Below, piece by piece: positions 1,540 through 59,805 of a stretch of 64,000 bases of DNA. The notes under the pieces were generated by a model, which saw only the letters and a list, made by a program, of their open reading frames with translations, did not search any database and had not been told where the DNA came from. Origin of the DNA: Girardinichthys multiradiatus (Eukaryota; Chordata; Actinopteri; Cyprinodontiformes; Goodeidae); assembly GCF_021462225.1 (NCBI RefSeq), contig NC_061816.1, forward strand, positions 10,441,390 to 10,505,389, in the 5' to 3' direction. The position numbers were made by a program, and so were the translations under genes. Each line of letters begins with the position of its first letter. Within the stretch, counting starts at the first letter, position 1.

Positions 1540-2600
1540 TGTGGCAACAAAGCTGGATGAGGACCCAGGTTTATCTTGCCACCACACACAGTGGAGGATG
1601 ACATGTTAGATAAAACAAATCCAGAGCTCACTGTTAGAGAACTGCAGCAATGAGTGGCATCTTGGGCTCACCAATGCCCATTTGGCACTGACTACTCCAC
1701 TCGGTCTCTCTCTACTCGGCACGGAACCAGTTGTGTTTCCATTGACCCACTTATGGCTGGAGCTATGACATGAAAACTTCCCTCCAGCCATCAGTGTAGT
1801 GAGTGCACTGTGCTGCTAATAACGTTTCCGTGTCACAGTATCACATTAAAGTAATCTGTGTAAAACATTAAAAATAAATAAATAGAAAATGAAAACATAA
1901 GCAAAATATAAATTTGCAAGAATGTCTTTTATATGAATTTATGAAATAAGGCTCAGGGGTTTTGATGCGAGGGGAGGTGGCAGGAGAAGCGGAGAGGAGA
2001 GACAACGCTATCTGGACTGGTAAGTTCCAAAGTTACAATTTTGGACTTGGACTCCCAATCACATCCCTCCAGGTGTCACTGTCATTTCCCATGTGGGCGT
2101 TGAGTTCCGTCACCAGAATAACGGAGACAATGCCTGTGGACATTGTCCAGAACCCCCCGCCAGGGACACTAAGACAGCTGGGTACTCTGGACCGCTGCTA
2201 GGCCCATAAGCGGAAACGACAGTCAAAGACTTCTCCCCGACTCGAAGGCACTGGGATGTGATCCTCTCATCCACAGAGGTAAACCCCAACATGAGAACTG
2301 GGTGGGGTCCCAGCTCCACCGCCCTGGGTGACGTGCCTTGTTGAACTGATCCTCATGAAAGCTTCTGAACTGCCTTTTGTCTGACCTGTTACCCAAAGCT
2401 TGTTTGCCATGGGAGACAACACGGCCTCTGGGATCATCTGAACCCTCAAACTCCACCACATTAAGGTGGTGTTTCAAGGAGGGGGCTATCTCAGTCCTCA
2501 GACCTAAATTCTATTGAGAGCTTGTTGGTGGATCTATAGAAAAGGGAATTTAGGAGAGGATGCAGGACTCTAGGCAAATTAGAGTGTGTCAGAAGTACTG
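1540..2600 (+). repeat. Tc1-like relic in pieces, interrupted by a Rex3 fragment
   Basis: About 1540-1660 resembles the mid-transposase part of a fish Tc1-like element in plus orientation. About 2480-2560 resembles the later part that encodes the SPDLNPIE-type block (here degraded to a cagtcctcagacctaaattc-like stretch). Between them lie 1660-1800, which I do not recognise, and an antisense Rex3 fragment. No open frame remains. The assignment is by eye against remembered Tc1 sequences, so confidence is low. Confidence 0.35.
2025..2477 (-). pseudogene. Rex3-type LINE, 5' region fragment (leader plus start of endonuclease)
   Basis: Read on the minus strand, this begins near 2477 with the same leader seen in the Rex3 copies at 37010 and 52239, including a short CACCAC/GTGGTG hairpin and a block related to ggtcagacaaa. 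It runs into the apurinic-type endonuclease region and ends just after a GNDSDTW motif at about 2070-2090; the same motif is read at about 52450-52475 in the twin-primed copy. Most of the endonuclease, all of the reverse transcriptase and the 3' end are missing. Having only the 5' part is unusual for LINEs, which normally lose the 5' end, so a later deletion or recombination is likely. No coding potential remains. Confidence 0.7.
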
Positions 2601-2639
2601 GTCAATGTTTAACCTCTGTTTAATCCAGCCTTGTGACTT

Positions 2640-3960
2640 TTGATATGGACTACATGGGCAGTTGCCCAGGGTGGCAAAGAACGAGGGTGGAAGCAAAAGC
2701 CTGATATTTATCAAAAAACACATGTATTTATTCCCTGATTTCCCTGTTTTTATGCATGTATTTTCAATGGAGAGTAGGCACTCTTGTGTTAAGTACACGC
2801 CCCCTGCTTACTGCTGAAAATAGGGAAATCGGGCTGTGGCCGAAGGATGAGGCTCAAACTATCCTAGTGAGCTAGTTGGGAAATTTGAAGAAATTAAGTT
2901 TTGGTTTTTTTTCAGTATTATTGAGACCACCATGAAAGGAGAAAATATAGTGCTAACAGAGTAACTCAACAGTGGTAGCAAGAACTGTTATGGTAGTCCG
3001 GGTGGGGGGGCAGCTAAAGGAGCGGCTTGCCCTGGGAACTATTCATACAAGAACTGCCACTGCAACCCTTTGAAATTCTATAGGAGAAGACTAATTGCTA
3101 ATAGCATAAGGGTGGCTGTAAAACGTATAAGCAGCCAGGGTGCCACCAGTGATTTTCTAAAAAAAAATAAAACTATTATTTTTTAGATTATTTACACAAC
3201 CGTATGAGGGGTGCCAATAACTGTGAAAGATGATGTACAGTACAAGGTCTCTTCAGTCTTAATACCATATGTCTAAAACTGGATTAGAACTGCAGGATTG
3301 TACATAGATCTAACAGCATTGTGGAGGGACGATTTGGAGACTTTTGATCACAATTTGCTAACCTTAAAAAGGTTTTCTCTTATCTAGTTAAGAGTGCAAG
3401 TGGAAAAATACAATTAGGCTACATTAATTTCTTACCTGTTCATGTCCTAGTATGGAAAAGGTAATGTTTTTCTTTTATTTCTGAAGCTCTTTTACCAACA
3501 ATAACAAGCAGCTGGTGTGTGCCACACAGTGGGATCTAAGACAACAAAAAGCACTTTTCTTTCATATTTTGTCAGCCTTTGTGTGCTACAGCCTGAAATT
3601 GCTCAGCTTGTGCAGGCCTTTAAGTTGCTGCTGTATCAGGCTACAATTTTTTCCTTTTGTCATTCCCGCTGTCACGACTTTTTATGCCATGAAAGTGCAG
3701 GAAAAAACAAGCTTTGGCCTTTTGAAATCTGTTTACTTCACTCCATGAACTAATTTGGGGTTGTTTTTTAGCAACATAATGTAAACGAGGGACTGCTGTG
3801 GCATAAAAACTGTCTAGAAGCCACTGGGATTGAAAAACGTCAATGGAAACAAATAAATTATAAATTTTACTCATGTTGTCTCTAATTGCAGTGCTGATGT
3901 TCTCAAAGAATAGTTTTATGTTTTTGTGTAAAACTATATTTCTTTCCTCTAGTGTTGGTT
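2640..3960. other. No gene seen
   Basis: AT-rich sequence with no recognised gene. Two short stretches (about 2650-2700 and 2995-3060) are GC-richer and look like small interspersed repeat pieces. The overlapping reading frames at 3515-3874 on both strands have no recognisable domain and are treated as chance. Confidence 0.4.
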
Positions 3961-3974
3961 ATGCTATTTGTTTT

Positions 3975-5440
3975 TGTATTTTTGTCACACTTAAATTTTT
4001 CAGATCATCAAATGTATAATCAAAGTAAATAGAAATGCCACATAAATTGTCTTTTTCTTAAAAAAATAAAATGCAATAACCCATTTTTTAATCTAAAGAA
4101 ATTCCAGAACAGATGTGAAACAACATGATTGACATTTATCAGTCTGGAATTTGTCATAAAGCCATTTCCAAGGCTTTGGGACGCAAAAGAACTACAGTGA
4201 GAGCCATTATCCACAAGTGGAGGAAACTTGGAATATTGGTGAACCTTCTCAGGAGTGGCTGCCCTATCAAAATGAATGAGTTAATCGACAACTCATCCAG
4301 GAGGTGACAGAAGTACTAACAGCAACATCTAAAGGACTCCAGTTATCTCAGTTAATGTGAGTGTTCAAATGTCCTGAATCATCAAAAGGAAAGTGACTAC
4401 CAAGTCAAAAACCACTGCTCATTTAAGAGAAAACTAAGGCCCATCTCAAATTTCCTAAAAATTTCCAAAAACAACCCCAAGGCTTCATTCATCCATCCAT
4501 TCTCTTTACCCTATTTTTCTTGCAGGGTCGTCAGGAGGCTGGTGCCTATCTCCAGCGGCCATTGGGCGAGAGGCCATTTCAATTCTGGACAGGTCATCTG
4601 GTCATCATAGGACCACGTAGAAACACACTGGACAATCAGCATGCACCAATTAAGCTAGCAGTAATTTTTTTGCATTGTGGGAGGAAACCAGGGTACCCAG
4701 ATAGAAGCTATAAATGCACAGGTAGTGTTTTCCCACCGAAACAATTCTCGTTCTGGAACAGGTTCCGTTCGTGTGCCTTTCAACTTTGGTGTTTTGTTGA
4801 GCACCGACACGTGTTTCCACCAATTGTGGGAACCAACCATGATGTTGGTCTGTGTCTGCTTTAATGTTAGATGACCTGGATGACTTTTGATAATTGATAG
4901 AACCACGAATTCTGCTCTCTTGCAAAAACACCTGAAGGATAATGTTCAGGCGTCAGTTTGTGACCTTAAGGTCATGTGCAATCGAGTTATGCAGAGGGAC
5001 ACTGACCCAAAGCACACCAATTACTTTTAATGAATGGCAAAGAAATAAACATAAGAACAAAATAAGATTTTAAAAGGACTTAGTCAAAGTGGGAATTTGA
5101 ATAGGATGTAGATGCTATGGCATGACCTTCAACAGGGTGTTCAAGCTTAAAACTCTTCCATTGTAGTTGAAATTAAACAATTCTGCAAATAAAAACTGAG
5201 TTGAATTTCCTCCACACCGATATAAAAGACTCGTTCTTGTTCCAAATAAGTTATTAGGTTTCATGGTCAATAACTTTCTCACAAAGGGCCAAAAACTGCA
5301 TTTTGTATTTACTCAGGTTATTTTGGTCTGATATTGAAATGAGTTTGATCTGAAGTATTTAAAAGTGACAAAAAAGCGAAAACAAAAGAAAATTTGGAAG
5401 GGGGCAAGTACTTTTTAACGGTACTGTGTATTTGATAAGA
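3975..5440 (+). repeat. Tc1-like transposon relic (gtcacac-end family), transposase degraded
   Basis: Plus-strand remains of a Tc1/mariner element. The left end carries the block with gtcacacttaaa and ttcagatcatcaaa found in other copies of this family here. A 60-residue open piece at 4125-4307 looks like the N-terminal helix-turn-helix (DIYQSG, SKALG, RTTVRAIIHKW). Remnants of the catalytic half follow from about 4905 (a gaattctgctctcttgcaaaaa-like block, then cactgacccaaagcacacc, then tatggcatgacctt). The end lies near 5425 (gcaagtacttttt). An unrelated repeat at about 4488-4860 has replaced or split the middle. Frameshifts and stops exclude function. Relatives of the same family lie at 15962, 30640, 43200 and 62665. 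Confidence 0.75.
4488..4722 (+). repeat. Interspersed repeat with a gctggtgcctatctccagc core
   Basis: Contains the core gctggtgcctatctccagc, then gggcgagagg and a gtgggaggaaacc block, a combination I recall as very common in teleost genomes. A second, shorter copy is at about 26414-26548. It sits inside the Tc1 relic and breaks it. The 4723-4860 stretch next to it is also foreign to the Tc1 relic but I do not recognise it. Confidence 0.55.
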
Positions 5441-5510
5441 GGACATTTATGGATGTTACATTTATAGGTTCATGTTAATGTGCCCTTGAGCAAACAGAAA
5501 ATGTATACAA

Positions 5511-5532
5511 GTGTGTGTGTGTGTGTGTGTGT
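5511..5532. repeat. (GT)n microsatellite
   Basis: Eleven uninterrupted GT units. Confidence 0.95.
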
Positions 5533-5711
5533 TCAAACAGAGCTGTGAATGCTTAATGAATTTACTTAGCGCTGATTGAAAATTAATTAAAACCACCTCA
5601 AACAGACAGCCGCCCACTGAGAAGCACTGGCAACACACTGACATACAGATTACTGCTTAAAAAAATGAAGGAGGCAGCAATGGAGGCAGGAGGAAAGACT
5701 GTCTCTAACTA

Positions 5712-7321
5712 TAGGTCCTTCTCAAAATATTAGCATATTGTGATAAAGTTAATTATTTTCCATAATGTCATGATGAAAATTTAACATTCATATATTTTAG
5801 ATTCATTGCACACTAACTGAAATATTTCAGGTTTTTTATTGTCTTAATACGGATGATTTTGTCATACAGCTCATGAAAACCCAAAATTCCTATCTCACAA
5901 AATTAGCATATTTCATCCGACCAATAAAAGAAAAGTGTTTTTAATACAAAAAACGTCAACCTTCAAATAATCATGTACAGTTATGCACTCAATACTTGGT
6001 CGGGAATCCTTTTGCAGAAATGACTGCTTCAATGCGGCGTGGCATGGAGGCAATCAGCCTGTGGCACTGCTGAGGTCTTATGGAGGCCCAGGATGCTTCG
6101 ATAGCGGCCTATAGCTCATCCAGAGTGTTGGGTCTTGAGTCTCTCAACGTTCTCTTCACAATATCCCACAGATTCTCTATGGGGTTCAGGTCAAGAGAGT
6201 TGGCAGGCAAATTGAGCACAGTGATACCATGGTCAGTAAACCATTTACCAGTGGTTTTGGCACTGTGAGCAGGTGCCAGGTCGTGCTGAACAATGAAATC
6301 TTCATCTCCATAAAGCTTTTCAGCAGATGGAAGCATGAAGTGCTCCAAAATCTCCTGATAGCTAGCTGCATTGACCCTGCCCTTGATAAAACACAGTGGA
6401 CCAACACCAGCAGCTGACACGGTACCCCAGACCATCACTGACTGTGGGTACTTGACACTGGACTTCTGGCATTCTGGCATTTCCTTCTCCCCAGTCTTCC
6501 TCCAGACTCTGACACCTTGATTTCTGAATGACATGCAGAATTTGCTTTCATCCCAAAAAAGTACTTTGGACCACTGAGCAACAGTCCAGTGCTGCTTCTC
6601 TGTAGCCCAGGTCAGGCGCTTCTGCCGCTGTTTCTGGTTCAAAAGTGGCTTGACCTGGGGAATGCGGCACCTGTAGCCCATTTCCTGCACACGCCTGTGC
6701 ACGGTGGCTCTGGATGTTTCTACTCCAGACTCAGTCCACTGCTTCCGCAGGTCCCCCAAGGTCTGGAATCGGCCCTTCTCCACAATCTTCCTCAGGGTCC
6801 GGTCACCTCTTCTCGTTGTGCAGCGTTTTCTGCCACACTTTTTCCTTCCCACAGACTTCCCACTGAGGTGCCTTGATACAGCACTCTGGGAACAGCCTAT
6901 TCGTTCAGAAATTTCTTTCTGTGTCTTACCCTCTTGCTTGAGGGTGTCAATAGTGGCCTTCTGGACAGCAGTCAGATCGGCAGTCTTACCCATGATTGGG
7001 GTTTTGAGTGATGAACCAGGCTGGGAGTTTTAAAGGCCTCAGGAATCTTTTGCAGGTGTTTAGAGTTAACTCGTTGATTCAGATGATTAGGTTCATAGCT
7101 CGTTTAGAGACCCTTTTAATGATATGCTAATTTTGTGAGATAGGAATTTTGGGTTTTCATGAGCTGTATGCCAAAATCATCCGTATTAAGACAATAAAAG
7201 ACCTGAAATATTTCAGTTAGTGTGCAATGAATCTAAAATATATGAATGTTAAATTTTCATCATGACATTATGGAAAATAATGAACTTTATCACAATATGC
7301 TAATATTTTGAGAAGGACCTG
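5712..7321 (-). mobile_element. Tc1 DD34E element, copy 1 (1610 bp, complete ends, dead transposase)
   Basis: Complete Tc1/mariner transposon on the minus strand. The terminal inverted repeats begin (C/T)AGGTCCTTCTCAAAA and extend well inward. TA duplications lie at 5710-5711 and 7322-7323. The length, 1610 bp, equals that of the copy at 33962-35571, and the two are near-identical by eye, so the family moved recently. The plus-strand left end has T where the other copies have C at the first base. The single gene inside is interrupted by one nonsense codon. The ends look intact, so transposase supplied from elsewhere could in principle still recognise it. Confidence 0.95.
5989..6993 (-). pseudogene. 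Tc1-family transposase (DD34E), nonsense codon at 295
   Basis: Cut-and-paste transposase that binds the element's inverted repeats and catalyses excision and reinsertion at TA. The start MGKTADLTAV matches the intact 334-aa copy at 34290. The N-terminal ~110 residues form paired-type helix-turn-helix DNA binding, with an AT-hook-like GRKKCGRKR at about 49-57. The triad D (WDES), D (QHDLAPAH) and E (DLNPIENLW) is present with 34 residues between the last two. Codon 295 is TAG where the intact copy has AAG, removing the last 40 residues. Downstream codons stay in frame to a TGA at 5989-5991. Other differences include WDES for SDES and SLDLN for SPDLN. A protein shortened by 40 residues keeps the triad but is probably inactive. 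Confidence 0.92.
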
Positions 7322-7359
7322 TATCTGACGAACTTTGTGCAACCCTGCATGTCGGGTTT

Positions 7360-30640: not shown

Positions 30641-31039
30641 TCTGTTGTGACTACTGGATAAATTGTTGATTCACATTTGGATAAACTTTTGTAGGCTGAC
30701 CACAACTGGAAAGGTTCACCATTGTTCCATTTTTCCTCTATTTGTGGATAATTGTTCTCATTCACTGAAGTGTAAAAACCTTAAATTGCTTTATAGCCAT
30801 TTCCAGACTCATTGACATCAATGGCTTTGTTTATTATCTTATTTCTTTAGGTCTGAGCTTGATGTATTGCTTTTTGAGATCTGTTAGCCTACACTCAAAA
30901 AAGCCAGATTGGGTGTGTGCTAAATTAATCTAAGTGTAACATGTTGCTTCTACCATATGTAGTCATGTTTTGTGGTTGAACATCATTAAGTAATGTTATT
31001 TTAGCTTGATGTGGAATAATTTAAGATTTACTAAATTCA

Positions 31040-31226
31040 GTCATGCTGACAGAACCTAATGCTTTTTGGGTAAGGTATCAAATGGCGTGTAGAACTCCAG
31101 AACAGAAGGTGGCAGTAGTGTGCGAGCAGGGAGTGCATTTACAAACTTTACTTCCGGAAGGTGCAGAAGAAGGAAGAGCAACACACAAAGACGCGGGAAG
31201 ACGGACGAGTTGGGGATGGAGGTAAG
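31040..31226 (+). promoter_or_regulatory. Probable promoter and first exon of the element-borne gene
   Basis: A locally GC-richer stretch with an Ets-like double site (acttccggaagg at about 31150), then a purine-rich leader. It ends in two overlapping splice donors: GTAAGG at 31222 and the consensus GTAAGT at 31227. An ATG at 31216 lies just before the donor. Housekeeping-type TATA-less promoters of teleost multicopy genes often look like this. No transcript evidence is available. Confidence 0.4.
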
Positions 31227-31406
31227 GTAAGTCATTTAATTTACCGTCCATCGACTTAAAAAATAAGTAACGGCACAGAAATTTCCCATAACTTTTTATT
31301 GTCCGCTCTATGATTTTGAACGATTAATTTCGTCACCGAGTCTTTTCGTTGTGCAATATATTCCACGTGTGCTTAGCGTCATATTAGCATTAGCTAGTCC
31401 GGTTAA

Positions 31407-31446
31407 ACACACACGCGTGCGCGTACACACACACACACACACACAC
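31407..31446. repeat. 40-bp alternating purine-pyrimidine tract (AC with CGCGTGCGCG core)
   Basis: Strict alternation from 31407 to 31446, with a CG/TG-rich core flanked by AC units, in the presumed first intron of the element-borne gene. Such tracts can form left-handed DNA under supercoiling. Confidence 0.85.
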
Positions 31447-32311
31447 CTATCAGTTTTGTCGGTAAGGGTTAACACAATGATGTAGATGTTTGTTTTCATT
31501 TAAATATCTAAAAAAAACAAAAAAAAAACAGCGTAAGCATGCCAATGAATGAATTTAGCACAATCTATGAGTAGATACTATTGAAACATAGAATTTCAAG
31601 CGAAACAACCCTGTGATTTTTTTTTTTCTTCTCTTCATTATCTGAAATGTTTTATAGAATCACTCGAATCTTCCTGTTTCCACGAATCTCTGAAACAACC
31701 TCACTCTGTATTTTAAAGTCAGGAATATGGTTTAATTTATTGACATCTATTTTTTGTTTTCAATGTGATATTATTTGGTTTATTTAAATACATTTTGACT
31801 GGTGGTCACAACTTCATCCACCGTGTAGCTTAATCTATAATTTAACTTTAAACTTTAATAGTAGGAATTAAAAAGAGCATGTGTCCACGCTCAAATTAAT
31901 GGAGTATTGTTGATTTGGAAAAATTCCACTGTAAGGTGTGTTTGGAGCAGATAAAGATGTGCGATTAATTATAATTAACCATAGTAAGTATAGTGTTTGT
32001 ATGTGTATTACGTAGGGGTGTCAAACTATTAGATTTTTGTAACTTATTAATAGCAATATTACTCTGTGATTAATTATGATACTAAAATACTTGTATGTTC
32101 TCCTTTTCTTTTAGCATTCTGTGACTGCAAGAGGAGAGGCTGGGTGTCCTAGTGTTTGCAAGCCTTAAGATTTGTGGCAGAGTTATTTAAATGGCCAGAC
32201 GACATACACACAGCTTTCTTAATATGTGCCAAATCCAGTGTCCTCCATGTTCGTGTTAACAGCTTGAAAATGGTACGCTCTCTCTGATTACTCTTTCTCT
32301 TTTTATCACAG

Positions 32312-33780
32312 ACATTCAAGACCAAGTTTCTTCTGTCATCAAGCAAAACCTGTTTCATCAACCGAGTGACTGCAGTATAGGGTCATCCACCAAAAGTATT
32401 AACTATCAACGTTGAACACTTGAACAAAAGTGGATCAGGTTATCTCTGATTATTATTATTTTTTATTTCTGGCAAAAAAATAGATTTCATCTATCAGTTC
32501 ACTTTACAATTCTATAGTGCAACAAAATTTTCAAGAAGTGTTTGTTTACATAGCAACTAGGTGAGTGGTCACACACATCTTCCTTAGAAAATCTCCTTCC
32601 TGTCTCTCATTTCTTACTAACTTAACTCACTAACTAACTTTATCTGTCTGTGTGTGTATGTGTTACTCTTTTTGTGTAAATTCATTTTCTCAACTCATTT
32701 TAGTGAGTGAGAGAAGTAAATCTCTTACAAATATTAATAGATGTACAAAAATAGACATAAACTAATCATAGTTTCACTGGTTGTTCTCAGTTCATGGCGT
32801 GAGGAGGAAAAATTTGCTGCAATTATTTGACATTTTGGCTTTCTCTCTGTATGAATAGATCTCTCCTTCACCATCATTGATTGCTCTCTCTCTGGTCATC
32901 ACAGAAATTCAAGACAATTCAGGTACATTTTTTATTTTACTTGTTGAACACACACACAGGTTACAGCTTGCTTTAGCAGCAATTTGAAACTTAGCATACA
33001 AGCGAATTTGCAATACAATATTGCAAATTCATATATCATAAAATTGATTGATAAAGATGAAATAGGTTACATTTGAAATAAATTTTTTTTTCCTGTGTTT
33101 AATGTGTCATTATGTGTGCAACATTTAGTCTCCCTGTTGGTTAAAACGGTTTTCCTTGTGTTTTTGTTTCCTGGTGTACTTTGTGTGGCCCACATACTCA
33201 GAACGACAACATTGATGCGAAAAGAGAGTGCCTCCGTCAGGCGCTGTCAGACTACCTGAACAAAGACCCGGAGAAAGTGGTGAAAGAACGCATGGTATGT
33301 AATTTATAATTTTCCTTATATTTACATCTTACAAAAGAAAATGCAATTATAGATCACACATTATGTTAATTAAGTAGATGTTTTGTTTAGTCATTTGGCC
33401 TTTGAAGCAAAACAAAATCTGTTGATTTTTATGATGATATTTATGTTTTTGTTTACTTTTTTCAGGACTCTGATGTTGACAAGGGTTAAGCTGAAATGGA
33501 GACTGTCTTCGGAGTATTTGTGATTCGCAGAGAAGGTGCAGAACGTGATGATGGTCCAGAGGATGTGGGCATCATTTTGGAGGGGGTACAAGTCCTCAAT
33601 GAGCTGGGTAATGTACCAGTAGCAGTTGCAATGCTGTTCACTTTAGTTTATGCACTCAATCTCAGCTACCCCCCAGAGTGGAAATACACTTTCGAAGCTC
33701 TGCAGAAACTCATCATGGGGCTTGATGGACAGAGGTTGTCTAAGAAACTGCAGGTGCTGAAAACCCTACTTACGTGTTAA
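32312..33780 (+). pseudogene. SAMD3-like multicopy fish protein, spliced C-terminal exons, nonsense codon
   Basis: At least three exon-like pieces with proper splice signals. (1) 32312 onward, after ttttatcacag, reads DIQDQVSSVIKQNLFHQPSD; no clear donor ends it. (2) 33202-33294, 31 codons between cag and gtatgt, reads AKRECLRQALSDYLNKDPEK and ends KERM. (3) 33466-33780, after ttttttcag, reads DSDVDKG, then an in-frame TAA (33487-33489), then an open stretch with TVFGVFVIRREGAE, EDVGIILEGVQVL, LVYALNLSYPP and YTFEALQKLI to a TAA at 33778. Pieces 2 and 3 resemble the last exons of the large uncharacterised teleost family labelled sterile alpha motif domain-containing protein 3-like; that is memory, not a search. 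Function is unknown. The TAA, probably from CAA, and missing upstream exons suggest a decayed or captured fragment. Confidence 0.6.
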
Positions 33781-33961
33781 CATTTTGTAGGGTAGCTGTT
33801 AGTGGTCTTCAACAACGAAAGTATCCCAGAGTCATGTTGGGGAGGCAGGTAGGGAGTCGTTCAGTCAATATTAGTGTTTTAAAATGACAGTCTGTTTTTA
33901 TGTTTCAATGCTCCCAGTTGTTGCAAAACTGTGGAGAAGCTTTCTGATCTGTGTTAATCTA

Positions 33962-35571
33962 CAGGTCCTTCTCAAAATATTAGCATATTGTGATGAAGTT
34001 CATTACTTTCCATAATGTCATGATGAAAATTTAACATTCATATATTTTAGATTCATTGCACACTAACTGAAATATTTCAGGTCTTTTATTGTCTTAATAC
34101 GGATGATTTTGGCATACAGCTCATGAAAACCCAAAATTCCTATCTCACAAAATTAGCATATCATTAAAAGGGTCTCTAAACGAGCTATGAACCTAATCAT
34201 CTGAATCAACGAGTTAACTCTAAACACCTGCAAAAGATTCCTGAGGCCTTTAAAACTCCCAGCCTGGTTCATCACTCAAAACCCCAATCATGGGTAAGAC
34301 TGCCGACCTGACTGCTGTCCAGAAGGCCACTGTTGACACCCTCAAGCAAGAGGGTAAGACACAGAAAGAAATTTCTGAACGAATAGTCTGTTCCCAGAGT
34401 GCTGTATCAAGGTACCTCAGTGGGAAGTCTGTGGGAAGGAAAAAGTGTGGCAGAAAACGCTGCACAACAAGAAGAGGTGACCGGACCCTGAGGAAGATTG
34501 TGGAGAAGGGCCGATTCCAGAACTTGGGGGACCTGCGGAAGCAGTGGACTGAGTCTGGAGTAGAAACATCCAGAGCCACCGTGCACAGGCGTGTGCAGGA
34601 AATGGGCTACAGGTGCCGCATTCCCCAGGTCAAGCCACTTTTGAACCAGAAACAGCGGCAGAAGCACCTGACCTGGGCTACAGAGAAGCAGCACTGGACT
34701 GTTGCTCAGTGGTCCAAAGTACTTTTTTCGGATGAAAGCAAATTCTGCATGTCATTCAGAAATCAAGGTGCCAGAGTCTGGAGGAAAACTGGGGAGAAGG
34801 AAATGCCAAAATGCCAGAAGTCCAGTGTCAAGTACCCACAGTCAGTGATGGTCTGGGGTGCCGTGTCAGCTGCTGGTGTTGGTCCACTGTGTTTTATCAA
34901 GGGCAGGGTCAATGCAGCTAGCTATCAGGAGATTTTGGAGCACTTCATGCTTCCATCTGCTGAAAAGCTTTATGGAGATGAAGATTTCATTTTTCAGCAC
35001 GACCTGGCACCTGCTCACAGTGTCAAAACCACTGGTAAATGGTTTACTGACCATGGTATCACTGTGCTCAATTGGCCTGCCAACTCTCCTGACCTGAACC
35101 CCATAGAGAATCTGTGGGATATTGTGAAGAGAACGTTGAGAGACTCAAGACCCAACACTCTGGATGAGCTAAAGGCCGCTATCGAAGCATCCTGGGCCTC
35201 CATAAGACCCCAGCAGTGCCACAGGCTGATTGCCTCCATGCCACGCCGCATTGAAGCAGTCATTTCTGCAAAAGGATTCCCGACCAAGTATTGAGTGCAT
35301 AACTGTACATGATTATTTGAAGGTTGACGTTTTTTGTATTAAAAACACTTTTCTTTTATTGGTCGGATGAAATATGCTAATTTTGTGAGATAGGAATTTT
35401 GGGTTTCCATGAGCTATATGCCAAAATCATCCGTATTAAGACAATAAAAGACCTGAAATATTTCAGTTAGTGTGCAATGAATCTAAAATATATGAATGTT
35501 AAATTTTCATCATGACATTATGGAAAATAATTAACTTTATCACAATATGCTAATATTTTGAGAAGGACCTG
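33962..35571 (+). mobile_element. Tc1 DD34E element, copy 2 (1610 bp, apparently intact)
   Basis: CAGGTCCTTCTCAAAATATT ends in inverted orientation, with TA at 33960-33961 and 35572-35573. Same length as copy 1. The transposase frame is uninterrupted. It sits in the 3' flank of the SAMD3-like exons and is the best candidate in the window for a mobile, self-sufficient member of this family. Confidence 0.95.
34290..35294 (+). CDS. Tc1-family transposase, DD34E, 334 aa, intact
   Basis: Cut-and-paste transposase for the 1610-bp family, expected to act in the nucleus on the ~200-bp inverted ends. The start MGKTADLTAV is shared by all three copies. Residues ~1-110 form paired-type helix-turn-helix DNA binding, with AT-hook-like GRKKCGRKR at 49-57. 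Catalytic triad: D148 (LFSDES), D238 (FQHDLAPAH) and E273 (SPDLNPIENLW), with 34 residues between the last two. The C-terminus is SMPRRIEAVISAKGFPTKY. Differences from the two broken copies include V33 in ERIVCSQ (they have G), N78 in GRFQNLG (T in copy 1) and W262 in NWPANSP; V33 lies in the second helix-turn-helix and could weaken DNA binding. Length is normal for Tc1 enzymes (about 340). Confidence 0.94.
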   Translation: MGKTADLTAVQKATVDTLKQEGKTQKEISERIVCSQSAVSRYLSGKSVGRKKCGRKRCTTRRGDRTLRKIVEKGRFQNLGDLRKQWTESGVETSRATVHRRVQEMGYRCRIPQVKPLLNQKQRQKHLTWATEKQHWTVAQWSKVLFSDESKFCMSFRNQGARVWRKTGEKEMPKCQKSSVKYPQSVMVWGAVSAAGVGPLCFIKGRVNAASYQEILEHFMLPSAEKLYGDEDFIFQHDLAPAHSVKTTGKWFTDHGITVLNWPANSPDLNPIENLWDIVKRTLRDSRPNTLDELKAAIEASWASIRPQQCHRLIASMPRRIEAVISAKGFPTKY

Positions 35572-35678
35572 TATTTCTGTGTTAACAATGCTTCAAATTG
35601 TTGCCTTGTTTGAATTTGAAGGACATGTGTATGAGTATTTCAGACTATTTTTCCATTAAAAAAGAAAGATGACAAAAG

Positions 35679-37759
35679 GTAAATCTGTTTCATCTGATTT
35701 TGAATTTTAAAATGAGACTGAATTTTAAGCATTGCATATTATAGCATTGAAATACTCGTACTCATCATCTTTTGCTTCATCCGGGACCGGGTTGTAGGGG
35801 CAGCACACTCTGTAGAGTTGCCCAGACGTCCCTCTCCCCAGACACCTCCTCCGGTTCCTCCAGGGGGAGCCCAAGGTGTTCCCAGGCCAGCCGAGAGACA
35901 TAGTCCCTCCAGCGTGTCCTGGGCCGTCCCCTGGACCTCCTCCCAGTGGGACGTGCCTGGAACACCTCCCGAGGAAGGTATCCAGGAGGCATCCGGTATA
36001 GATGCCCGAGCCACCTCAACTGGCTCCTCTCGATGTGGAGGAGCAGCGTCTCTACTCCGAGCTCCTCCCGGATGGCTGAGCTCCTCAACCTATCTCTAAG
36101 GGAGTGCCCGGCCACCCTACGGAGGAAGCTCATTTCAGCCGCTTGTATCCGGGATCTCGTTCTTTCAGTCATGACCCAAAGTTCATGGCCATAGGTGAGG
36201 GTAGGAACGTAGACCGTCCGGTAAATCGAGAGCTTCACTTTTTGGCTCAGCTCTCTCTTCACCACAATGGACCAGCACAGTGTCCCCATTACTGCGGCAG
36301 CCGCACCGATCTGTCTGTCGATCTCCCGCTTGTACAGAGACCGGATGGCCCCTAATAAAGCCCTGAGTACCCTAATTGAGGTACTCAGGGCGGATCTCAT
36401 CCAACCCTGAAGCCCTGGAGCTTTTAAACCACCGCAGTGACTTCAGCCTGGGTGATGAATGAGTCCAACTCCAAGTCCCCAGCCTCTGTTTCTATCAGGG
36501 AATGCGTGACGGCAGGATTGAGGAGATCCTCGAAGTACTCCTTCCACGGCCCGTGTTTTTGCCTCTGCCACAGCTCGGGCCGCGGCACGCTTGGCCTCAC
36601 AGTACCTCTCAGGAGTCCCACAAGCCAACCACAGCCGATAGGACCCTTCAGCTTACTGCCGGTGTCCACCACCAGGTTCGGGGATTGCTGCCACGACAGG
36701 CACCACAGAACGTACGGGCGCAGCTACGGGCGGCAGCATCGACAATAGATGCGGAGAACATGGTCCGCTCGGACTCTTTCTCCAACATCCCCCAAAATCT
36801 GGTCAAAGTTCTCCTGGAGGTGGGAGTTGAAGTCACATGCCTCAATTTTGTGGTCCTCATGAAGGTGTCTTGAACCGCTCTTTGTCTGACCCATCACCTA
36901 GAGCCTGTTTGCCATGGGAGACCCTACCAGGGGCATTTAGGCCCCAGACAACATAGCCTCTAGGATCATTCGAGCACTTAAACCCTTCCACCACGTTATG
37001 GTGGCGGTTCATGGTTGAAGATTTGAATTTTTTTACACTGAAATTAAACCTTCCTATCTTTATTAGTGAATTTTCACCTGTATTTTTCAGTATTTTCACA
37101 TTCAAAATCAAAATTAAATTAAAAAAAAAAATGACATTGAAATGAATGAAGTTTGTGAAAATACAAAGTTTAGATTTCAGTTGCTAAATTTTCAAGACGC
37201 CAAATTCAACCAGCAAAATTCAGCATCAACATACAACGTCTTAAATTCATGAAAACAGCTGAGATTCTAGATCAAGTCAAACCAATATCCAGCCTGTTTA
37301 TTAGGTCTTAATGTAAAACAAACCGAAATTGTGTCAGCGTTGCTGGAGATGATAGCTGACTAACAGAAACAGCTGGACAGATGAGTTACCAGCTGTTCAC
37401 TTTATAGAAAACAGTTTTACATGAAACCCTGATGAAAAGGCTGGATATTGGTTCAACTTGATCTATAATCTATTGCTTTTCCCTGGGATCTCAGCTGTTT
37501 CAAGTTGAATTTTAGACTGCATATTTCAACACTGAAATTTTGACTGCTTGTTAGAATTTCTATTAGAATTATTTTATTAGAATTTTTTGAAACATGAAAT
37601 TTCGATTCCGAATATGAAAATAGTGAAACATTTCTATTGAAAATTTGAAGCAGTAAATTCAGGGTAAAAGCAATTCAGGTACACAATTTCAATGCATTAA
37701 TATTCACTGGTAACAATTCTACTTCATTTTTAATTCAAAATCAGATGAAACAGATTTAC
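35679..37759. mobile_element. Fold-back type element with long imperfect inverted repeats, split by Rex3
   Basis: The outer ends are a perfect 28-bp inverted repeat (35679-35706 and 37732-37759, starting GTAAATCTGTTTCATCTGAT). Further in, 37254-37295 and 37438-37471 form another inverted pair containing accaatatccagcct with few mismatches. The arms between are rich in gaattt/aaattc and pair imperfectly. Without the inserted Rex3 (about 35754-37015) the element is about 820 bp and could fold almost end to end. No coding frame. The target duplication was not identified. Confidence 0.65.
35754..37015 (-). pseudogene. Rex3-type LINE with internal deletions
   Basis: Minus-strand copy. The 3' end near 35754 has an AGTAC-type tail. 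The C-terminal RT part is open at 35777-36400 (KREIDRQIGAA to PLQPGPG), then the sequence jumps: the whole central RT including FADD is missing, so GAIRSLYK is joined directly to REIDRQ. A second junction at 36360-36392 joins RALLGAIRS to the region before EIRPEYLK and contains an 11-bp inverted repeat. Further deletions follow up to the 5' leader, whose end is near 37015 (ccaccacgttatggtgg). Non-functional. It retains both the 5' leader and the 3' end, so it was probably a long insertion that lost its middle. Confidence 0.85.
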
Positions 37760-38224
37760 GCCGTAAATAGAGGGCTCTGTAGTATACGGATTCATTTTGA
37801 GAATTGTATTATTTATTTCAAATTCATTGATGCACAAGAATGCACTTTTATTTTTATTGTATTTAAATTTTTTGTAGAGTCAGATGTTTTTCTATGTTTG
37901 CCTCTTCATAGGGAATAAAGTTTAATGTCAAGAAATCCTGTTTGCTTTAAGGTGTTTTTTTCCTAACTTGATATCAACTATCATAAACTAGGATGACAAA
38001 TTTTTATATTGTTTAAAACAAATATTGATGTCAGAATTGACTTATTGAATTATTATTATTGATTTTCATATGAATGAAACGACTCACAACTAAAGTATTT
38101 GTGATTGTCAAACACACATAAGTCTTGTCTGATCAGCACAATAAATTAGTTGTTTTGTATCATTTTAAAATATAGTTGCAGCTACCCCATTAAAGTGGGT
38201 CATCCACACTTAAATCAAACATGT

Positions 38225-38571
38225 GTGAATATGTTGAACTAACCTTTAAAAATGATGTTGGATTTACCTCTATTCGGCATGTTTACATTAATTTCACTCA
38301 ACAAAACTGTCACTTGCTAAATGAGCGTATTATAATTGGGTGGAAATACTTTCCGTAAATTTTGTATGTTCACCCAACAAAAGATTATTATGTTGGACTT
38401 ACTCCTTGTGATTGAGTAATAATAACACCAACACCTTATGTTGAACCAGCATATTTACATTTATGTCACTTAATAAAACTATTTCTTGCTAAATTAGGGT
38501 ATTATTATTATTGGGTGGAAATACTTTCCATAATTTTTTGATGTTCACCCAACAAATAATTTTTTTGAGTG
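38225..38571. repeat. Subterminal tandem pair (~175-bp units) at the right end of the 7.68-kb element
   Basis: Both units contain gcat(g/a)tttacatt, cttgctaaat, gggtggaaatactttcc and atgttcacccaacaaa in the same order; the gggtggaaatactttcc blocks start at about 38338 and 38513. Repeated subterminal motifs are often transposase-binding sites. The left end of the element has only a single gattgggtg echo. Confidence 0.7.
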
Positions 38572-38826
38572 TACTTCAAGTTGTCAGTAGGTTCTATTTA
38601 AGTGGCTTCCTAATTGCACACCTCTGGCAGATATCAGTCCTGGGTGTGGTTAGTGAAACTGAACCAAATATTGTGGCTTTTCTTTGGTTAAGTTTTTCTC
38701 TGATATTAAAATTAGTTTGTCAACCTGAAAAATTTAAGTAAGACAAAAGAGCAAAAACAGAAAAAGTATTTAAAGGAAAGAGATCCTTTATTACAGCTCT
38801 ATCCAGTTTTGCCATTTGTAACACTT

Positions 38827-57826: not shown

Positions 57827-58615
57827 TTTGGTCACTGCTGTTTGTTCAGCTTCCTCTCAGTCCTGGAGGTTGTCTCCAGGAGATGAGTAAAATACTTTTT
57901 GTGTGTATGTTTGCCTGGGGCAATAGGAGCTAATGTAAACAGGTGTTTGTCTCGTTTCCAGGTGGAGTTGGTTGAATGAATGCAGTGATGCAGGGCAGAG
58001 TCCTTTCTGCTCCGGTTTTGCCATCTTAGTAACTGTCAACATAAAAAGAGATCTAAATGATTAAATGTCCTTATATTTTGTTTGCAAGAATCAGGAACCT
58101 AAGGCCTTCATGACTTGTAAAAGTTTTCTTTTGAACTTGTACAGCTTTTCCCCCCCATGCTAAGCATGCTAGGTCATTGTTCTCCCCAAAAACTGGAAGA
58201 AAGTAGGTTAACATTAGTGATAGGATAGGTTAAAAAACATCTTTCTAAAGTAGATAAATAGCATGTGAAAGTGGAAACAGGAAAGATGCATCATCTCACC
58301 ACTCATATTTACAGTATTTAGGGGCCATTATCAGACTGTTATCCAATGATAAGATAGGGTAAAATATCCCACTGTTTCACGATGATGATGATGTTTAAAG
58401 AAGCATTTAAAGCTGAAACGTATTACATTATATTGTTGTAATCTAATTTGTTACAGAAGATGAAAAAACCATAAACTGTACCAAATGCTTTCGAGAGAGT
58501 AACATGAGATATAAGTCATGATGTTCTGCTCAGCTAGATTTGAAATTATTAACGATCTGTGTTGTTCCACCCAGAGCAAATCTCTGGATTTAGGTGCATC
58601 CAACTGTAGCCATAC
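56861..58615. other. No gene seen; (TG)n at 57794-57825
   Basis: Contains a clean TG microsatellite at 57794-57825. Short frames around it arise from the repeat. No other structure was recognised. Confidence 0.4.
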
Positions 58616-58617
58616 TA

Positions 58618-59805
58618 CAGGTCCTTCTCAAAATATTAGCATATTGTGATAAAGTTCATTATTTTCCATAATGTCATGATGAAAATTTAACATTCATATA
58701 TTTTAGATTCATTGCACACTAACTGAAATATTTCAGGTCTTTTATTGTCTTAATACGGATGATTTTGGCATACAGCTCATGAAAACCCAAAATTCCTATC
58801 TCACAAAATTAGCATATCATTAAAAGGGTCTCTAAACGAGCTATGAACCTAATCATCTGAATCAACGAGTTAACTCTAAACACCTGCAAAAGATTCCTGA
58901 GGCATTTAAAACTCCCAGCCTGGTTCATCACTCAAAACCCCAATCATGGGTAAGACTGCCGACCTGACTGCTGTCCAGAAGGCCACTATTGACACCCTCA
59001 AGCAAGAGGGTAAGACACAGAAAGACATTTCTGAACGAATAGGCTGTTCCCAGAGTGCTGTATCAAGGCACCTCAGTGGGAAGTCTGTGGGAAGGAAAAA
59101 GTGTGGCAGAAAACGCTGCACAACGAGAAGAGGTGACCGGACCCTGAGGAAGATTGTGGAGAAGGGCCGATTCTAGACCTTGGGGGACCTGCGGAAGCAG
59201 TGGACTGAGTCTGGAGTAGAAACATCCAGAGCCACCGTGCACAGGCGTGTGCAGGAAATGGGCTACAGGTGCCGCACTCCCCAGGTCAAGCCACTTTTGA
59301 ACCAGAAACAGCGGCAGAAGCGCCTGACCTGGGCTACAGAGAAGCAGCACTGGACTGTTGCTCAGTGGTCCAAAGTACTTTTTTCGGATGAAAGCAAATT
59401 CTGCATGTCATTCGGAAATCAAGGTGCCAGAGTCTGGAGGAAGACTGGGGAGAAGGAAATGCCAGAATGCCAGAAGTCCAGTGTCAAGTACCCACAGTCA
59501 GTGATGGTCTGGGGTGCCGTGTCAGCTGCTGGTGTTGGTCCACTGTGTTTTATCAAGGGCAGGGTCAATGCAGCTAGCTATCAGGAGATTTTGGAGCACT
59601 TCATGCTTCCATCTGCTGAAAAGCTTTATGGAGATGAAGATTTCATTGTTCAGCACGACCTGGCACCTGCTCACAGTGCCAAAACCACTGGTAAATGGTT
59701 TACTGACCATGATATCACTGTGCTCAATTTGCCTGCCAACTCACTTGACCTGAACCCCATAGAGAATCTGTGGGATATTGTGAAGAGAACGTTGAGAGAC
59801 TCAAG
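58618..59805 (+). mobile_element. Tc1 DD34E element, copy 3, right end lost
   Basis: Left end CAGGTCCTTCTCAAAATATT with TA at 58616-58617, near-identical to copies 1 and 2. The match stops abruptly at 59805, within the transposase gene just after the RTLRDSR codons, and the right inverted repeat is absent. With one end missing it should not be mobile. Confidence 0.93.
58946..59805 (+). pseudogene. Tc1 DD34E transposase, nonsense at codon 77 and 3' truncation
   Basis: Starts MGKTADLTAV. Codon 77 is TAG where the intact copy has CAG (59174-59176). After it the same frame stays open through D (LFSDES), D (QHDLAPAH) and E (DLNPIENLW) to DSR, then runs into unrelated sequence and stops at 59879-59881. 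It has SLDLN like copy 1, so copies 1 and 3 share changes not in copy 2. Confidence 0.92.

What the first reader, a model, noticed from the sequence alone, without database searches (positions are those of the whole stretch)
30892..38571. A 7.68-kb TA-flanked element that carries spliced SAMD3-like exons
The boundaries are clear: CACTCAAAAAA inverted ends, a TA duplication, and an interrupted Tc1 relic whose two halves rejoin when the element is removed. Inside is a promoter-like first exon with a consensus donor, then exons with correct splice sites that resemble the C-terminal exons of the large, unexplained SAMD3-like protein family of teleosts. If that family is spread by such elements, this would explain its copy number. 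No transposase of a known superfamily was seen, so either the cargo is captured or the SAMD3-like protein is part of an undescribed transposition system.
Basis: partly seen in the sequence, partly recalled or inferred. Interest (0 to 1): 0.78.

Follow-up and report, generated by a model that had tools for sequence, protein, structure and literature searches.

The report
SAMD3-like gene belongs to fish transposon
A widespread but unexplained fish gene family, mislabelled SAMD3-like, appears to be the second gene of a jumping DNA element whose own cutting enzyme is predicted to resemble RAG1, and the copy in this window is a shortened version of that element.

Summary
Window 30892-38571 is a mobile element with CACTC...GAGTG ends and a 2-bp target duplication; the empty site rejoins exactly. 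The genome matches Girardinichthys multiradiatus.

The window copy is a deletion derivative. Two longer copies (C10, C56) carry, between the same exons, a C2H2 zinc-finger transposase gene followed by the rest of the SAMD3-like gene. One deletion junction is exact in six loci at five sites, so the derivative moved in trans. Eight of 360 retrieved proteins, from at least six fish species, are gene models joining transposase to SAMD3-like parts in that order.

Verdict: the SAMD3-like protein is the conserved second protein of a vertebrate CACTA-related transposon. Its TNPA-like accessory role is inferred. The genome-wide census failed: the genome search did not complete.

The parts
30890..30891 (.). 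left copy of the TA target duplication
30892..30902 (+). 5' terminal inverted repeat CACTCAAAAAA
30909..30915 (+). subterminal motif TTGGGTG, also at 38336, 38371 (reverse), 38511 and 38546 (reverse); none elsewhere in the element
31060..31226 (+). promoter-like stretch and first exon ending at a GTAAG donor (31222 or 31227)
   Evidence: exon read from the sequence, not tested; the first 509 bp are 84-99% identical in 12 other near-complete matches
32908..32929 (+). deletion junction TTCAAGACAATTCAGGTACATT; about 6 kb with the transposase gene and SAMD3-like exons A-B is missing here
33202..33294 (+). SAMD3-like exon C (31 codons), AG acceptor and GT donor
33466..33780 (+). SAMD3-like last exon D; in-frame stop at 33487-33489, then a 94-codon open frame from ATG 33496 to TAA 33778-33780
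33961..35572 (+). nested younger Tc1 element with 202-bp inverted repeats and an open transposase frame; not part of the system (absent from C1, C2, C24a, C20)
35777..36442 (-). reversed non-LTR retrotransposon remnant (label recalled, no call), related sequence in other copies
38277..38567 (+). 3' subterminal direct repeats, two units about 175 bp apart holding the TTGGGTG/CACCCAA motifs
38561..38571 (-). 3' terminal inverted repeat (TTTTTTGAGTG)
38572..38573 (.). right copy of the TA target duplication

Best explanation
The window holds an internally deleted, non-autonomous copy of a two-gene cut-and-paste DNA transposon of the CMC (EnSpm/CACTA-Mirage-Chapaev) group in the goodeid fish Girardinichthys multiradiatus. 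The full element reads: CACTC end - subterminal motif - promoter and non-coding exon(s) - gene 1 (about 890 aa: C2H2 zinc fingers, RAG1/Transib-like DDE core, BAH-like C-terminus) - gene 2 (about 525 aa: the fish SAMD3-like protein with an N-terminal PB1-like domain, spliced) - 3' subterminal repeats - GAGTG end. Shown: the ends, the 2-bp duplication, the gene order in overlapping copies, one deletion junction at five sites, and transposase/SAMD3-like joined gene models in other fish. Inferred: the transposase cuts at the CACTC ends through its D362/D454/E706 site; the SAMD3-like protein acts with it, as TNPA does with TNPD in maize En/Spm, by oligomerising through PB1 and helping to assemble the ends; and many fish genes named SAMD3-like are copies of this second gene.
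Against: No copy found here has both intact ends and both genes: the 3' end of C10 and C56 was not found in the 20 kb fetched, and both have stops and frame breaks. Transposase_21 matches stay below Pfam's cut-off (best 23.2 bits against 28.6). PB1 is weak by sequence and tied with other ubiquitin-like folds. 4 of 16 loci with the 5' end lack SAMD3-like exons, and transposase sequence is in only 2 of 16. C10 and C56 lack the TTGGGTG motif in their first 500 bp and C20 lacks it in its last 400 bp. The joined proteins are automatic gene models, which can merge neighbours. No expression or activity data. The accessory role rests on analogy.
Confidence: 0.82

Rival explanations
1. The SAMD3-like gene is a host gene captured once by this transposon and carried as a passenger.
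For: Deletion derivatives keep only its last exons; some copies with the 5' end lack it. Genes labelled SAMD3 without the suffix exist in fish.
Against: The transposase/SAMD3-like joining recurs in gene models of Clarias, Trichomycterus, Dallia, Merluccius, Goodea and Girardinichthys, with SAMD3-like parts 41-80% identical to P0121. A single recent capture would not give that spread; an old capture that became a fixed gene would, and then it is a transposon gene.
Confidence: 0.08
2. Two independent mobile elements lie side by side or nested: a CACTA-like element and a separate unit with the SAMD3-like gene.
For: Nesting is common here: this copy itself holds a Tc1 and a LINE remnant. Two gene models with SAMD3-like parts also carry a DDE_Tnp_4 (HARBI1-type) match (P0135, P0347).
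Against: Same order and orientation in this genome and in other species; the SAMD3-like exons run on to the GAGTG 3' end in C20 and in the deletion copies. A second set of ends between the genes was not searched for systematically.
Confidence: 0.06
3. The 94-codon open frame kept in the deletion copies makes a truncated SAMD3-like protein that acts as a repressor, so the derivatives are selected regulatory elements rather than passive passengers.
For: Open in the window, C1, C2, C25a and C24b, starting at an ATG in four of these five.
Against: pN/pS among these five copies is scattered (0.21-1.90 over ten non-independent pairs, few changes). C24a has a frame break (left out of that count) and C24b lost the ATG.
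Confidence: 0.05

Closest known systems
Maize En/Spm (plant CACTA), TNPD plus TNPA
   Same: CAC...GTG ends (recalled), transposase plus a smaller second protein from one element (roles of TNPA and TNPD from passages of PMC1636069)
   Different: 2-bp rather than 3-bp duplication; the second protein has a PB1-like N-terminus; the transposase carries zinc fingers and a BAH-like domain; alternative splicing not tested here. No sequence comparison with TNPA was made.
SmTRC1 and other animal CACTA-related (TRC) elements
   Same: Animal element with 2-bp duplication (7 of 14 copies) and a Transposase_21-type transposase (PMC1636069, passages)
   Different: The TRC ends reported begin with CCC; that paper found no relatives of its accessory proteins in other animals, whereas here the second protein is conserved across fish and in a sea star
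Plavaka / ESTA / EnSpm lineages of fungi (CMCT clade)
   Same: C(2)C and H(3-4)H motifs between second D and last E, CA...TG ends, 2-5 bp duplications (PMC12730594, passages)
   Different: The cargo reported there is a TET/JBP dioxygenase; no SAMD3-like protein in the passages seen; only weak Pfam Plavaka matches here (4 of 55)
RAG1 / Transib transposases
   Different: About 12% identity; N-terminal zinc fingers and C-terminal BAH-like domain; 2-bp duplication
Cellular SAMD3
   Same: Database name shared
   Different: No SAM domain match in 51 of 51 SAMD3-like proteins scanned; cellular SAMD3 of tetrapods was not compared here

Membership tests
CMC(T) transposases (EnSpm/CACTA-Mirage-Chapaev-Transib) | DDD/E catalytic residues | tested here: met
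   D362, D454, E706 in 81 of 81 homologues; in the model D362 lies in a strand, D454 just after one, E706 in a helix; catalysis itself not tested
CMC(T) transposases (EnSpm/CACTA-Mirage-Chapaev-Transib) | C(2)C and H(3-4)H motifs between second D and last E (feature from PMC12730594 passages) | tested here: met
   C474xxC477 (81 and 80 of 81), H682xxxH686 (81 of 81)
CMC(T) transposases (EnSpm/CACTA-Mirage-Chapaev-Transib) | CA...TG ends and 2-5 bp target duplication | tested here: met
   CACTC...GAGTG; 2 bp in 4 of 4 distinct insertions with both ends intact; empty site for the window copy
EnSpm/CACTA sensu stricto | 3-bp target duplication | tested here: not met
   2 bp (TA or CA); so filed under CMC, not under EnSpm proper
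Pfam Transposase_21 (tnp2) | score above Pfam's curated cut-off | tested here: not met
   best of eight members with scores shown 23.2 bits against 28.6; 17 of 55 members at E<=0.01, best 4.3e-5
RAG1/Transib fold | fold of the catalytic core | tested here: met
SAM-domain proteins (SAMD3) | SAM domain | tested here: not met
   0 of 51 members match a SAM model of Pfam at E<=0.01
PB1-domain proteins | PB1 domain at the N-terminus | tested here: inconclusive
TNPA-like accessory protein | binds subterminal repeats and the transposase | not testable with these tools
   needs binding assays
Tc1/mariner | TA duplication and Tc1-type transposase of the element itself | tested here: not met
   CA/CA in two of four insertions; the Tc1 inside is a nested insertion with its own repeats

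The most novel reading that the evidence does not exclude
Vertebrates carry a two-protein transposition system parallel to RAG1/RAG2 and TNPD/TNPA: a zinc-finger, RAG1-fold, BAH-tailed transposase with a PB1 protein that polymerises on the element ends. The BAH-like part reads chromatin to choose sites, the many SAMD3-like genes annotated in fish are its second subunit, and the cellular SAMD3 gene of vertebrates is a domesticated copy.
Probability: 0.3. Interest if true: 0.85.

Novelty: new variant of a known kind. Interest (0 to 1): 0.7.

Why it matters
It gives an origin to a gene family that fish genome projects annotate as host genes and may count in gene-family statistics. It names a conserved second protein for vertebrate CACTA-related elements, which makes the question of why such elements need two proteins testable in zebrafish or killifish. 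The predicted RAG1-like core with an added BAH-like domain suggests a chromatin-reading transposase.

Tried and rejected
Rejected: Tc1/mariner as the element itself (the Tc1 inside is nested). The idea that the 5-kb extra stretch of C24b/C25b held further genes of the element: it looks like an LTR-retrotransposon insertion from a gag-like open frame (label recalled). SAM domain (0 of 51). Led nowhere: viral-contig scan with the transposase, 0 confirmed loci; BFVD fold search of the SAMD3-like model, nothing at E<=0.001; Foldseek of that model against the PDB, nothing at E<=0.001; profile search of solved structures with the SAMD3-like family, only weak matches, best a forkhead protein at E 0.2. 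The middle and C-terminal parts of the SAMD3-like model were barely tested, because the PB1-like domain filled the lists. Shared contig lengths (P0246/P0185, 5384; P0247/P0179, 11470) were noted but not counted, because equal lengths can arise by chance. Papers: looked for SAMD3 or sterile alpha motif together with fish, transposon or EnSpm terms; only 12 to 20 rows of each listing were seen and no row joined SAMD3-like genes to transposons. Searches looked for CACTA/EnSpm, Plavaka, RAG1/Transib and BAH terms. Repbase and most subscription papers are not held, so a Repbase entry may already describe the element.

Full report
What was checked. The window (G000:C23:10441390-10505389) comes from a genome of 1.15 Gb. 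The database protein P0028 is named for Girardinichthys multiradiatus and lies on a contig of 38405005 bp, the exact length of contig C10, so the organism is taken to be that goodeid fish.

Ends and target. The element starts CACTCAAAAAA at 30892 and ends TTTTTTGAGTG at 38571 with TA on both sides. With one TA kept, the joined flanks align without a gap at the junction to a relative of the target at window 16.4-16.7 kb. Among loci with both ends intact, collapsed to distinct insertions, two are TA/TA (window; C24a with its near-identical counterpart C25a) and two CA/CA (C1, C2). C20 was left out of this count because its first 9 bp are missing. At the 5' side alone, C9, C24b and C6 show TA and the C2 fragment L032 shows CA. 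That the target is a Tc1 relic stays open: no flank match better than E 0.68, but a weak Tc1-like match (E 0.004) about 200 bp from its relative at 16.4 kb.

Copies. One search gave 17 rows, which are 16 loci (two rows are pieces of one). I have sequence at all 16: the window, ten loci of 20 kb, three of 10 kb and two of 3 kb. C24a/C25a and C24b/C25b are 98.5-98.9% identical over 20 kb with flanks and count as one insertion each. Four loci lie within 58 kb on C20 and are counted as one cluster. This leaves 11. SAMD3-like exons are in 12 of 16 loci (8 of 11); C9, one C20 copy (L031), L032 and L033 have none in the stretch fetched. Transposase sequence is in 2 of 16 (C10, C56).

The missing middle. 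Between window 32914 and 32920, C56 and C10 have about 6 kb or more, partly of other insertions. Read in order this holds a C2H2 zinc-finger and DDE-type transposase gene, broken by stops and frame shifts in both copies, then the first two coding exons of the SAMD3-like gene. C56 continues through the last SAMD3-like exon. C20 has a smaller deletion and links SAMD3-like exons B-D to the GAGTG end. The junction string is exact in the window, C1, C2, C24a, C25a and C24b, 6 of the 11 loci with 20 kb in hand; C25b aligns across it but not exactly, and C9, C10, C20 and C56 lack it. One deletion, then spread to five sites: movement of a non-autonomous copy by an enzyme made elsewhere. The stop codon in the last exon is present in 6 of 7 deletion-type loci (C24a has serine) and absent from C20 and C56.

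The same pair of genes in other fish. Searches with the SAMD3-like protein put together from C56 and the transposase put together from C10 found full-length relatives: P0121 at 74% over 100% and P0241 at 83% over 99%. Names include sterile alpha motif domain-containing protein 3 and 3-like; many are unnamed. A sea star protein (P0213) is 40% identical over 99%. Of the 360 proteins retrieved (120 best of each of three searches), eight hold both parts, transposase first: P0188 and P0347 (Merluccius polli), P0028 (Girardinichthys), P0109 (Dallia), P0139 (Goodea), P0203 (Trichomycterus), P0220 (Clarias), P0102 (unnamed). These are automatic gene models and may merge neighbours, but they show adjacency and order. 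P0203 and P0220 join only a piece of the transposase to a nearly full SAMD3-like protein, which alternative splicing would also give; that was not tested.

Mechanism. Most likely the transposase recognises the CACTC ends, cuts and pastes into TA/CA sites; the SAMD3-like protein oligomerises and helps to bring the ends together at the TTGGGTG/CACCCAA motifs. In the five loci with both ends intact these lie at position 18 and four times in the last 240 bp, and not in the interior; C10 and C56 lack the motif near the 5' end and C20 near the 3' end. The role is by analogy with TNPA and TNPD (PMC1636069, passages) and is not shown.

Limits. The genome search answered once; 26 later requests did not complete, so the genome-wide association test is open. 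No complete copy with both genes and both ends was found. Repbase was not available.

Noticed in passing
window 33496-33780: A 94-codon open frame with its own ATG is kept in several deletion copies after the stop; it could give a truncated, repressor-like protein.
   Followed up: partly
C24 and C25 of G000 (loci L009-L012, L017-L020): The two contigs carry the same two insertions with 98.5-98.9% identical 20-kb stretches; they may be two haplotypes or sex-chromosome forms of one chromosome kept apart in the assembly.
   Followed up: no
window 5707-7323, 58615-59805 and 33961-35572: Three Tc1 copies about 98% alike, one with an open transposase frame: a young Tc1 family.
   Followed up: no
P0135 (Stegastes), P0347 (Merluccius): Gene models with SAMD3-like parts that also contain a DDE_Tnp_4 (HARBI1-type) match downstream; perhaps nested Harbinger elements or a further association.
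   Followed up: partly
P0147, P0208: Fish SAMD3-like protein clusters whose name also lists Mustela putorius furo; probably contamination or mislabelled records.
   Followed up: no
transposase residues 749-878 (P0241 numbering): BAH-like C-terminal domain on a DNA transposase; none of the ten rows listed by the paper search held the term BAH domain.
   Followed up: partly
L024 (C24b, C25b copies, locus copy positions about 2273-7297): A 5-kb insertion with a gag-like open frame (LTR-retrotransposon-like, label recalled) sits inside this copy; described only (the loci are L017/L018 and L019/L020).
   Followed up: no
PMC10298005 table (one passage): A fish genome paper lists SAMD3 in a pathway table, an example of where transposon genes may enter host gene statistics.
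   Followed up: no
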